This document shows positions 39,337 to 41,913 of a stretch of DNA of 64,000 nucleotides, one piece after another. The notes under the pieces are model-generated. The model saw only the letters and a list, made by a program, of their open reading frames with translations. It did not search any database and was not told the DNA's origin. Both the position numbers and the translations under genes were made by a program. The stretch's first letter is position 1. Every line of letters starts with the position of its first letter. The DNA is from Streptomyces sp. TSRI0107. Lineage in GTDB: Bacteria; Actinomycetota; Actinomycetes; Streptomycetales; Streptomycetaceae. The stretch lies in contig NZ_LIVZ01000002.1 in assembly GCF_001905845.1 (NCBI RefSeq), positions 620,001-684,000 of the forward strand. Reading direction: 5' to 3'.

Positions 39337-41913
39337 TCAGTGATCCGCTGCCGGGAACGGGTAGGCGGGCAGGTCCGCGGCGGCACGGCGGGCGGCGCCG
39401 GGTTCGGCCGCCGGGCCGAAGACCGCCTCCCAGTCCGGCTGGGCGCCCCGCGTGAACAGCGTGGCGACGGCGGTGCTCAGGGTGGCCCCCTCGGGCAGTC
39501 CGGGGCGCAGGGCGTAGGCGAAGCCGCCCTCGGGCGCGGCCATCCTCGCGAACGCGCTGAGCACGGGCGACGGCCCGAGTTCGAGGAAGGACGTCACGCC
39601 CTTGCCGGCGAGCCAGCCGATGCCCTGGGCGAACCGGACGGGGCGGCGGATGTGCTCGACCCAGTAGTCGGGGTCGCCGAGTTCGTCGTCCCCGGCGCGC
39701 ATGCCGGTCAGGTTGGAGACGACCGGGATCCGCGGGGCGTGGTAGTCGACCTTGCTCGCGACGGTGCGGAACTCCTCGAGGATGCCCTCCATGTGGAGTG
39801 AGTGGAAGGCGTGGCTGACCCGCAGCCGGGTCGTCTTGAAGCCCTCCTCGGCCAGTGCCGCGGCGACCGCGCCGGCCGGTTCCTCGTCCCCGGAGATCAC
39901 CGTGGCCGTGGCGGTGTTGACGGCGGCGATGTCGACGCGTCCGTCGCCGTGCCGTTCGAGGGCCCTGGTGACGGTCGCCTCGTCCGCGGCGACGGCGATC
40001 ATGGCCCCGCCGGCGGGCGCCGACTGCATCAGCCGGGCCCGTGCCGCGACCAGGTCGCAGGCGTCGTCGAGGGAGAACACGCCGGCGACGTGGGCGGCGA
40101 CGAGTTCGCCGAGCGAGTGGCCGATCAGCTGACTCGGTGTCAGTCCCCAGTCGGTGACGAGCCGGAACAGCGCCACTTCGAGGGCGAACAGCGCGGGCTG
40201 CGCGTACAGGGTGAGGTTGAGCAGGTCGGACTGCTCGGTTCCCTGCTCAGCGAACATCACGTCCAGCAGCGGCTGGTCGAGATGGCGGTCGAAGCGCTCG
40301 GCGATCTCCTCCAGCGCGGCGGCGAACACCGGGTACTCGGCGTGCAGTTCGCGTCCCATGCCGGGCCGCTGGCTGCCCTGCCCGGTGAACAGGAAGGCCG
40401 TCGGCTCGTCGGCGGCCCGGGCCGGCGGCACCACGTTGACCGCGAAGCCGTCGTCGGCGATCGCCTCGAGTCCGGCCAGCACCTCCGAGCGGTCCGCGGC
40501 GACCAGCGCGGCCCGGTGGGCCAGCGGGGTGCGGCCCGCCGCGAGGGCGTACGCGGCGGCGCCCAGGTCCAGGTCCGGGTGTTCGGTGACGTACGTCCTG
40601 AGCCGGTCGGCCTGCCGCAGCAGGGTGGGAGCGTCGTGCGCGGACAGCACCCAGGGCAGGGCGCGGGGGGCCGTGGCGGGTTCGCCGGACGCCGAGGGGG
40701 CGGGCCGGTCCGCGTGGCCGGCTTCCTGCCGCCGCAGGATCCGCAGGGGTTCCTCGGCCCAGGTGTCCGGGGCGGCCGCCGCCATCGCCAGGTCGCACTC
40801 GCCGCGCCGCAGGGCACGGTGTGCGGCGGCGAGCGCGGCACGTCCGGGGGAGGTGCCCGCGTCCGGCGCGCCGACGGGTCCCTGCCAGCCGTAGGTGGCG
40901 GACAGGCGGGCGGCCGAGCGGCCCGCGCCGCCGGGCCGGCCGTCGTCGCCGTCGCCCGCCTCGGGGGTGAGGGAGCGCTCGACGAAGACGCCGACCTGCC
41001 GGCCGCGGGTGGAGGCCGGCGGGATCATGACCCGTTCGAGCAGCTGCCAGGCCGTGGTGGCGAGGACGCTGTCGCGGCCGGACACCGGTGTGCCGGGGCC
41101 CAGGGTGAAGGCGGCGGCGTCGAACGGCATCGGGACGGCCCGCCGGGTGCCGAAGCCGCGGAACGGGCTGGCCAGGCTGTGGACGCGCGCCGGGGACGGC
41201 ACGGCGGCCGGGGCCGCGGTGTACGGCGTGAGCACCGTGCGCAGCAGTTCCAGGAACTCGGCGCGGTTCTCGCGGACGAAGAAGTGTCCGCCGTCCACCT
41301 GGTGCAGCCGGTAGGTGGCCGTCGTGCGGTCCGCCCAGCCGGCCATGTGGTCGCGGGGCACCAGCCAGTCCTCGGTGCCCGAGAACACGTGGATGGGGCA
41401 GGGGATCCGCGAGCCCGGCTCGTCGCGGTGCGTCCGCCACAGGAGCAGGTCCTCGCGCAGCGACGCGGTGACGGAGTCGACCCAGTCGGGGTAGGCCAGC
41501 ACCTCGCGGGGCATTCCGCTGATCTCCAGCATGAACTCGATGAGGCTGTCCTCGTCCAGCTCCAGGGAGTCGAGGGTGTGGGCCACGTCCGGCGCCGGGA
41601 ACGCCCCGACGAACAGGGCCTCGGGGGCGCGCAGGCCGCGGGCCGCGCGGCGCCGCACCAGTTCGTAGCCGACGAGGCCGCCGAAACTGTGCCCGTACAC
41701 CAGGTGCGGGCCGTTCAGCAGGGGCGTGAGGCTCTCTTCGAGCCGGTCGACGAGTTCGTTCAGGTCTTCGACCCGTTGGTCCCCGCCGCGTCCGGGAAGA
41801 GTGACCGGCACGACCTCCACATCGTCGGCGAGCCGGTGCTGCCACCCGGAGAACAGGGAAGCGTCGCCCCCTGCGTGATGGAAGCAGACGAGTCGCATCG
41901 GAACCCGGTCCAT
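39337..41913 (-). CDS. Type II thioesterase - KS remnant - acyltransferase fusion (candidate trans-acting AT)
   Basis: This protein has 858 residues in three parts. Residues 1-232 are a full type II thioesterase: GHSFGG with Ser76, Asp182 in GTEDW, and His210 in GGHFF. Residues about 259-398 align segment by segment with a modular KS (FDAAAFTLGPGT, ATTAWQLLERV, GWQGPV, RRGECDLAMA), but the nucleophile region reads DAGTSPG instead of TACSSS, and the HGTGT and NIGH parts are gone. Residues 418-500 are a KS-AT linker, and 505-830 an intact AT: GQGSQ at 511, GHSLGE with Ser600, and HAFH 701-704 (malonyl type). It ends in a shortened post-AT linker (LPAYPF). The TE could remove stalled acyl groups; I infer that the AT loads the AT-less modules 1 and 2 of the next gene. 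ATG 41913 is chosen over an upstream TTG because GAGGAAGGA is well placed. Confidence 0.88.
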   Translation of the reverse strand: MDRVPMRLVCFHHAGGDASLFSGWQHRLADDVEVVPVTLPGRGGDQRVEDLNELVDRLEESLTPLLNGPHLVYGHSFGGLVGYELVRRRAARGLRAPEALFVGAFPAPDVAHTLDSLELDEDSLIEFMLEISGMPREVLAYPDWVDSVTASLREDLLLWRTHRDEPGSRIPCPIHVFSGTEDWLVPRDHMAGWADRTTATYRLHQVDGGHFFVRENRAEFLELLRTVLTPYTAAPAAVPSPARVHSLASPFRGFGTRRAVPMPFDAAAFTLGPGTPVSGRDSVLATTAWQLLERVMIPPASTRGRQVGVFVERSLTPEAGDGDDGRPGGAGRSAARLSATYGWQGPVGAPDAGTSPGRAALAAAHRALRRGECDLAMAAAAPDTWAEEPLRILRRQEAGHADRPAPSASGEPATAPRALPWVLSAHDAPTLLRQADRLRTYVTEHPDLDLGAAAYALAAGRTPLAHRAALVAADRSEVLAGLEAIADDGFAVNVVPPARAADEPTAFLFTGQGSQRPGMGRELHAEYPVFAAALEEIAERFDRHLDQPLLDVMFAEQGTEQSDLLNLTLYAQPALFALEVALFRLVTDWGLTPSQLIGHSLGELVAAHVAGVFSLDDACDLVAARARLMQSAPAGGAMIAVAADEATVTRALERHGDGRVDIAAVNTATATVISGDEEPAGAVAAALAEEGFKTTRLRVSHAFHSLHMEGILEEFRTVASKVDYHAPRIPVVSNLTGMRAGDDELGDPDYWVEHIRRPVRFAQGIGWLAGKGVTSFLELGPSPVLSAFARMAAPEGGFAYALRPGLPEGATLSTAVATLFTRGAQPDWEAVFGPAAEPGAARRAAADLPAYPFPAADH
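40720..41139 (-). other. Vestigial ketosynthase segment inside the TE-AT protein
   Basis: About 140 residues remain of the usual 425. Order and spacing match a modular KS from the FDPAFFGISPRE region through the GEC(S)LA(M)AGG region. The catalytic Cys and both catalytic His regions are missing, so it cannot condense. It now acts as a linker between TE and AT. Confidence 0.8.

What the first reader, a model, noticed from the sequence alone, without database searches (positions are those of the whole stretch)
39337..41913. A freed acyltransferase: thioesterase - dead KS remnant - AT fusion next to the AT-less modules
The protein joins a complete type II TE to a decayed KS (no Cys, no HGTGT, no NIGH) and a complete malonyl-type AT with its own KS-AT and post-AT linkers. 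The remnant shows how the AT was obtained: a KS-AT didomain of a normal module was captured behind a TE and the KS decayed. Beside a PKS missing exactly two ATs, this looks like a cis-AT line turning into a mixed cis/trans system, with editing (TE) and loading (AT) in one polypeptide. I do not recall a described TE-KS remnant-AT protein of this kind.
Basis: partly seen in the sequence, partly recalled or inferred. Interest (0 to 1): 0.93.

Follow-up and report, generated by a model that had tools for sequence, protein, structure and literature searches.

The report
Thioesterase–acyltransferase fusion beside loader-less modules
A bacterial protein that joins a thioesterase to an acyltransferase (the enzyme that loads building blocks), with a broken-down ketosynthase piece between them, is encoded directly upstream of a polyketide assembly line whose first two modules lack their own acyltransferase; it likely loads those two modules from outside, and relatives in which the broken piece is missing suggest how such a free loader may be trimmed out of a normal module.

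Summary
Observation confirmed. ORF 39337-41913 (-) is 858 aa: a RifR-like type II thioesterase with its Ser-Asp-His triad, about 120 residues of a ketosynthase (no active Cys; HGTGT and NIGH missing), then KS-AT linker, malonyl-type AT and post-AT linker. The PKS downstream has 8 KS and 6 AT; modules 1 and 2 lack AT.

New here: (1) of 100 protein-search hits only three have TE before AT; in the two Kitasatospora ones the KS remnant is cleanly absent and the TE runs straight into the linker. (2) The AT-less modules are old: six PKSs share them, with the AT missing at the same place. (3) One of these, S. cinerochromogenes, has no TE-AT, so the pairing is not obligatory. (4) The AT is its own clade of cis-type ATs, not an evident copy of modules 3-7. 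(5) A discrete ACP with FabF/FabG/FabH-like genes lies 4 kb upstream, a rival target.

Most likely a trans-acting malonyl loader plus editor for modules 1-2 (untested). Mixed cis/trans lines are known and an AT-TEII didomain (LtmB/MgsB) is in print; here order and AT lineage differ. New variant of a known kind.

The parts
39337..41913 (-). TE - KS remnant - KS-AT linker - AT protein, 858 aa
41239..41895 (-). type II thioesterase domain, residues 7-225; Ser76, Asp182, His210
   Evidence: Pfam PF00975; best solved relative RifR 3fla, E 2e-34; residues identical in 4 of 4 TE-ATs
40711..41070 (-). ketosynthase remnant, residues 282-401 (N- and C-terminal parts missing, no active Cys, HGTGT or NIGH)
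   Evidence: Pfam PF00109 profile 91-221/252; alignment to module-1 KS; absent from P0002 and P0003
40450..40650 (-). KS-AT linker domain, residues 422-488
   Evidence: Pfam PF22336/PF22621; predicted with high confidence together with the AT
39547..40395 (-). malonyl-type acyltransferase domain, residues 507-789; GHSLG Ser600, HAFH 701-704
   Evidence: Pfam PF00698; solved cis-AT relatives 9iyw, 6iyo; tree
39340..39546 (-). post-AT linker and C-terminus, residues 790-858
   Evidence: aligned to post-AT linkers of solved KS-AT proteins
22139..39013 (-). PKS subunit 1 (5624 aa from the ATG at 39013): KSQ-AT-ACP / module 1 KS-KR-ACP / module 2 KS-DH-KR-ACP / module 3 KS-AT-DH-KR-ACP
34070..34462 (-). 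module 1: KS-AT linker joined to post-AT linker, AT missing (scar)
30335..30712 (-). module 2: KS-AT linker joined to post-AT linker, AT missing (scar)
24986..26269 (-). module 3 AT region (malonyl type, cis), compared in the tree
46007..46249 (-). discrete ACP-like ORF (80 aa, GIDSL) among FabG-, FabF- and FabH-like genes; possible rival client of the AT
   Evidence: ORF list and motif by inspection; neighbours by Pfam and NCBIfam

Best explanation
The gene encodes a thioesterase - ketosynthase-remnant - acyltransferase protein that likely works in trans, its AT predicted to load malonyl units onto the carrier proteins of the two AT-less modules (1 and 2) of the PKS encoded just downstream and its TE predicted to strip stalled short acyl groups from them. 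Shown by sequence: domain order, catalytic residues, missing ATs, same-strand neighbourhood. Inferred: a KS-AT didomain of a cis-AT module was fused behind a TE, the KS lost its function and decayed, and in the Kitasatospora relatives it was deleted completely, leaving the TE joined to the KS-AT linker. Inferred and untested: malonyl-CoA specificity, ACP partners, and TE editing. The donor module of the AT is not identified.
For: Two AT-less modules, with linkers kept and the AT missing at one place, in 6 of 6 orthologous PKSs found, 12 of 12 module copies, so they likely work without a cis AT. The TE-AT gene is directly upstream on the same strand, 323 bp from the PKS ATG, with no promoter- or terminator-like site found by a simple scan. 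AT and TE catalytic residues identical in 4 of 4 TE-ATs. Linker+AT predicted with pLDDT mostly above 90 for residues 421-830 and matching cis KS-AT/AT structures. HAFH motif of the malonyl type, AT nested among cis ATs. Remnant present in 2 of 4 TE-ATs and cleanly absent in 2 of 4, with TE 71-75% and AT 82% identical to the window's. Precedents: discrete ATs complement AT-null cis modules (PMC6164871, passages); AH-AT and AT-TEII fusions join loading and editing (PMC11775670, passages).
Against: S. cinerochromogenes has the same AT-less PKS without a TE-AT: best TE match 35%, and AT matches on that contig are only the PKS's own modules. In 394 family genomes the AT-less PKS is in 2 and the TE-AT in 1. 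A discrete ACP with FabG/FabF/FabH-like genes lies about 4 kb upstream of the TE-AT and has no counterpart found near the S. cinerochromogenes PKS, so the TE-AT could go with that set instead. The window's own genome holds other discrete ATs: FabD (C1:763820-764641) and an AT at C23:334562-335200. It is not known whether the Kitasatospora TE-ATs lie beside an AT-less PKS; the strain names of P0002/P0003 and of the Kitasatospora PKSs P0190/P0201/P0212 differ. No docking element was looked for beyond Pfam. The TE part of the model has low confidence because only four rows cover it.
Confidence: 0.6

Rival explanations
1. Modules 1 and 2 are loaded by another AT, such as the fatty-acid FabD or another discrete AT of the cell, and the TE-AT mainly contributes editing or is a helper that raises flux.
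For: S. cinerochromogenes has the same two AT-less modules with no TE-AT but has a tandem AT protein at C3:354802-356568, on a contig whose large PKS frames at 283-330 kb have KS-type matches and no AT match, and other small AT matches; the window genome has FabD and a further discrete AT; S. coelicolor malonyl transacylase restores AT-null DEBS module 6 (PMC6164871, passages).
Against: The TE-AT is the immediate upstream gene on the same strand and keeps an intact AT active site in 4 of 4 members; its AT changes less between genera (18% of positions) than its TE (25-29%), as expected of a working AT.
Confidence: 0.18
2. The AT (malonyl) and TE serve a different acceptor, the discrete ACP at 46007-46249 with its FabG/FabF/FabH-like partners at 44033-47351, and the place beside the AT-less PKS is incidental.
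For: An 80-aa ACP-like ORF with GIDSL lies between the FabF-like and FabH-like genes on the same strand; this set is present in the one genome that has the TE-AT and was not found within 115 kb of C7 holding the S. cinerochromogenes PKS, apart from general KS similarity.
Against: Type II ACPs are usually served by the cell's FabD (established knowledge); two modules without AT are nearer, with no other gene between; opposite-strand gene 42050-43051 separates the TE-AT from the set.
Confidence: 0.15
3. The protein is a decaying PKS leftover without AT function.
For: It contains a dead KS piece that may change faster (8 of 179 against 13 of 678 positions between window and P0001, Fisher p 0.059).
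Against: TE and AT catalytic residues are kept across two genera while the dead piece alone is gone in two members.
Confidence: 0.04

Closest known systems
LtmB/MgsB AT-TEII didomain (lactimidomycin / migrastatin); described in PMC11775670, passages read
   Same: One free, trans-acting protein joins a loading AT and a type II TE; [quoted passage not shown]
   Different: Order written as AT-TEII; here TE - KS remnant - KS-AT linker - AT, with a cis-type AT in a mostly cis-AT line. Their sequences were not compared here.
AH-AT / AT-AH fusions of trans-AT PKSs (RhiG, OocV, OzmM; PMC11775670, passages)
   Same: Editing and loading in one polypeptide.
   Different: The editing part there has the AT fold; here it is an alpha/beta-hydrolase TE of the RifR type.
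Type II thioesterase RifR (3fla)
   Same: Same family, catalytic motifs aligned.
   Different: RifR stands alone (recalled); this TE is fused to an AT.
Cis-AT KS-AT didomains and excised linker-AT proteins (9iyw chimera, salinomycin AT 6iyo, CurL 4mz0, DEBS 2qo3)
   Same: Same linker + AT + post-AT layout; 46-48% identity for 9iyw and 6iyo.
   Different: There the KS is complete or left out of the construct; here a KS fragment remains in the natural protein and a TE stands before it.
[quoted passage not shown]
   Same: AT-containing and AT-less modules in one line.
   Different: The loaders were not described in the passages read.

Membership tests
Trans-acting AT of a PKS | AT encoded as a protein separate from the modules | tested here: met
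Trans-acting AT of a PKS | AT-less modules in the same line | tested here: met
   modules 1 and 2
Trans-acting AT of a PKS | AT of the classical trans-AT lineage, without KS-AT linker | tested here: not met
   linker present; best solved relatives are cis ATs (338 bits), DisD at 128 bits
Trans-acting AT of a PKS | Transfers extender to the AT-less modules' ACPs | not testable with these tools
   needs an assay
LtmB/MgsB AT-TEII didomain | AT and type II TE in one free protein | tested here: met
LtmB/MgsB AT-TEII didomain | Order AT then TE | tested here: not met
   TE is N-terminal; order of LtmB/MgsB taken from PMC11775670
LtmB/MgsB AT-TEII didomain | Common descent with LtmB/MgsB | not tested
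   no LtmB/MgsB sequence was fetched
Type II thioesterase | PF00975 family with Ser-Asp-His triad | tested here: met
Type II thioesterase | Hydrolyses short acyl groups from ACPs | not testable with these tools
   needs an assay
AH-AT fusion | Editing domain of the AT fold | tested here: not met
   editing domain is PF00975
Functional ketosynthase | Cys-His-His active site | tested here: not met

The most novel reading that the evidence does not exclude
A trans-acting PKS loader caught while being carved out of a cis module: a KS-AT didomain was captured behind an editing thioesterase, its KS decayed (window and P0001) and was then removed to the last residue (Kitasatospora), giving a second, independently built load-and-edit enzyme with the reverse order of LtmB/MgsB, which serves two modules that had already lost their ATs.
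Probability: 0.38. Interest if true: 0.76.

Novelty: new variant of a known kind. Interest (0 to 1): 0.56.

Why it matters
How trans-acting ATs arise and how AT-less modules become dependent on them is usually argued from deep phylogeny. Here intermediates survive: a dead KS fragment still marks what kind of protein the AT came from, relatives lack it, and one relative has the same AT-less modules without the fusion. That makes the order of events and the need for the fused AT testable in related strains. It also offers a natural, compact TE-AT part that might charge and clean AT-deleted modules.

Tried and rejected
Assembly chimera: rejected, P0001 is a separate 97% copy. AT as a recent copy of a sister module: not supported; the ATs of modules 4, 5, 6 and 7 each pair with an S. 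cinerochromogenes counterpart and the module-3 ATs of six lines form a clade (64 of the 140 AT rows collected), but forcing the TE-ATs together with the module-3 ATs is not rejected (AU p 0.194), so the donor stays open. KS remnant as derived from module 1: module 1 scores best among the KSs of subunit 1 in 6 of 6 lines (34-48 bits), but unrelated PKSs score higher (up to 54 bits), so no claim. Faster decay of the remnant: 8/179 against 13/678 changes, p 0.059, suggestive only. Finding TE-AT neighbourhoods: the genome-contig scan with the TE alignment confirmed none of 116 pattern matches; in 391 other genomes of the genus no TE match above 47% identity is listed; of 394 family genomes only the window's own passes E 1e-120 (the sets overlap); 0 of 70 genomes of one sister genus at E 1e-125 (no positive control in that set). 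Product identity: searches gave none; the one albocycline paper opened had no hit for gene cluster or polyketide synthase. Structure model: read only for linker+AT; TE and remnant are covered by 4 and 2 rows and have low confidence. Literature for the order TE then AT: the listings (titles and abstract starts; passages of four of these papers read) point to none; the library holds open-licence papers only.

Full report
What is there. The ORF at 39337-41913 (-) starts at ATG 41913 behind GAGGAAGG and encodes 858 aa. Pfam gives, in order, thioesterase, a fragment of the N-terminal KS domain (profile 91-221 of 252), KS-AT linker and AT; the C-terminal KS domain is not matched. Aligned to the intact KS of module 1 the remnant spans KS residues 72-211 of about 425 with 49 identities in 140 columns; the active Cys is not conserved, and the stretches with HGTGT and NIGH are missing. 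TE: closest solved relative RifR, E 2e-34. AT: closest solved relatives are linker-AT parts of cis PKSs (9iyw, 6iyo; 46-48% identity). HAFH as a malonyl signature is established knowledge of the family; PMC11775670 describes GHSxGE and xFHS motifs for malonyl ATs (passages).

The assembly line. Three PKS subunits on the same strand follow. Motif and Pfam scans give 8 KS (one KSQ) and 6 AT: the loading module and modules 3, 4, 5, 6 and 7 have an AT, modules 1 and 2 have none. In both AT-less modules the KS-AT linker and the post-AT linker with LPTYPF are kept and joined. The gap from the TE-AT stop to the PKS ATG at 39013 is 323 bp, and a simple scan finds no promoter-like or terminator-like site there; whether they form one transcript is untested.

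The AT-less state is old. A protein search with residues 1480-2300 of subunit 1 (976 scored, best 120 listed) returned, besides the window's own protein (P0105), five proteins with 100% coverage at 65-71% identity: S. cinerochromogenes, Streptomyces sp. NPDC017095 and three Kitasatospora strains. In 6 of 6 the order is KSQ-AT-ACP, module 1 without AT, module 2 without AT, module 3 with malonyl-type AT. The region from GTNAHV to the post-AT linker is 149-177 aa in 12 of 12 AT-less copies against 458-465 aa in 6 of 6 module-3 copies, and the missing part falls at the same alignment position, next to a shared A-A-x-D-F/V segment. In the window, modules 1 and 2 share identical DNA tracts of 205, 122, 101 and 76 bp, the 101-bp one within the KS-AT linker just before the scar, and their KSs are 86.7% identical against 74.6 and 76.2% with module 3. 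This fits duplication or gene conversion between the two modules (inference).

Relatives of the TE-AT. A search of about 5.8 billion proteins (7984 candidates scored, 100 hits) returned three with TE before AT: P0001 (858 aa, 97%, JGI), P0002 (696 aa, Kitasatospora sp. NPDC057965) and P0003 (678 aa, K. purpeofusca). A check of all 100 hits finds an AT match in 92 and a TE match in 6, N-terminal of the AT in those 3 only. A second search with the AT part alone (120 of 2992 listed) gave only P0002 and P0003 above 55% identity; P0001 is too long for that query's length limits. In P0002 and P0003 the stretch equal to window residues 236-415 is absent and the TE runs into PRALPWVLSA, the start of the KS-AT linker, while TE is 71-75% and AT 82% identical to the window's. 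Because a KS fragment in the right place before its linker is hard to gain, the remnant-bearing form is taken as the older one (inference). Between window and P0001 the remnant region has 8 changes in 179 positions against 13 in 678 elsewhere, Fisher p 0.059.

Where the AT comes from. In a 64-row maximum-likelihood tree (rows chosen from the 140) the four TE-AT ATs form a 100/100 clade inside cis ATs of the malonyl kind. The module-3 ATs of six lines form another clade (100/99), and window modules 4, 5, 6 and 7 pair with S. cinerochromogenes counterparts. Holding TE-ATs and module-3 ATs together costs 27 log units but is not rejected (p-AU 0.194). The donor module is therefore not identified.

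Results against a tight coupling. The S. cinerochromogenes genome (G723, reached through locus L082 titled strain JCM 3385; its contig C7 is 421,715 bases, as for P0159) holds the AT-less PKS, but the best TE match is 35% and the AT matches on that contig are the PKS's own modules. It has a 625-aa tandem AT protein, by inspection behind an ECH/PfaD-like ORF, about 26 kb beyond large PKS frames that have no AT match, so probably of a trans-AT line. In 394 genomes of the family the AT-less PKS is in 2 at E 1e-100 (G000 and G680, which gives the same coordinates as G723) and the TE-AT in 1 at E 1e-120, G000. In 392 genomes of the genus (an overlapping set) both are seen only in G000: no other TE match above 47% is listed, and of 32 genomes with a scar-alignment match at E 1e-90 the listed rows other than G000's own begin at query position 71 or later. 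So the AT-less line can exist without the TE-AT; either it was lost and replaced there, or it was gained later elsewhere. Second, an 80-aa ACP-like ORF with GIDSL lies at 46007-46249 (-) between the FabF-like and FabH-like genes, with a FabG-like gene beside them; tblastn finds nothing of that set but general KS similarity in the 115 kb around the S. cinerochromogenes PKS (the ACP itself was not in that query). With one genome on each side this cannot decide, but the TE-AT could serve that ACP.

Other ATs in the window's genome. A PF00698 search finds 38 matches in G000. Four lie in open frames under 1000 aa: the TE-AT; FabD (C1:763820-764641, beside FabH and ACP genes by inspection); an ACP-AT protein whose GHSxG reads GHGTG (C1:870164-871000); and a discrete AT with GHSMG and AFHH (C23:334562-335200). 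FabD and the last are possible competitors for loading modules 1-2.

Structure. An AlphaFold2 model from a 30-row alignment gives pLDDT mostly above 90 for residues 421-830 and under 50 for most of 151-413; four rows cover the TE and two the remnant, so low confidence there says little. Foldseek's best PDB matches are KS-AT didomains and excised ATs.

How it most likely works. Malonyl-CoA acylates Ser600, the AT passes malonyl to the ACPs of modules 1 and 2, and the TE clears acetyl or other stalled groups. All three steps are inferred. Precedents: discrete ATs and S. coelicolor malonyl transacylase restore AT-null DEBS modules (PMC6164871, passages); TEIIs and AHs remove short acyl groups from ACPs (PMC11775670, passages).

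What is known already. [quoted passage not shown] The present protein has the reverse order, a cis-type AT with its linkers, and a visible KS remnant. Nothing in the listings points to such a protein; the library is limited to open licences. I file it as a new variant of a known kind.

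Noticed in passing
window 12333-22955 (-), subunit 2, module 4: Module 4 shows KS, AT, zinc-dehydrogenase (ER-like) and ACP matches, but the only KR and DH matches of the subunit lie in module 5: an ER-like domain without KR or DH.
   Followed up: no
window 886-14475 (-), module 6 AT: AT with GHSGG and YASHS motifs that nevertheless groups with malonyl-type ATs in the tree, in the window and in S. cinerochromogenes; extender unclear.
   Followed up: partly
window 35791-30335 (-): Identical DNA tracts of 205, 122, 101 and 76 bp between modules 1 and 2, suggesting gene conversion.
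   Followed up: partly
window 43074-51709 (-): Alpha/beta-hydrolase, FabG-, FabF-, ACP- and FabH-like genes, a KASIII-like fragment, FAD monooxygenase, AfsA and HAD genes upstream of the TE-AT: looks like a small type II set of its own.
   Followed up: partly
L144:10047-11537 (-), own genome C1:870 kb: ACP-AT protein near a ligase-like ORF with GHGTG where ATs have GHSxG, so probably without the usual nucleophile.
   Followed up: no
proteins P0269, P0327: Discrete AT proteins of 475 and 470 aa on multi-megabase contigs of S. stramineus and Pseudofrankia, not marked partial: possible further freed cis-type ATs.
   Followed up: no
chain 9pc6_A: A solved chain named for both DEBS and RifR matches the AT and the TE part: apparently an engineered PKS-TEII fusion.
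   Followed up: no
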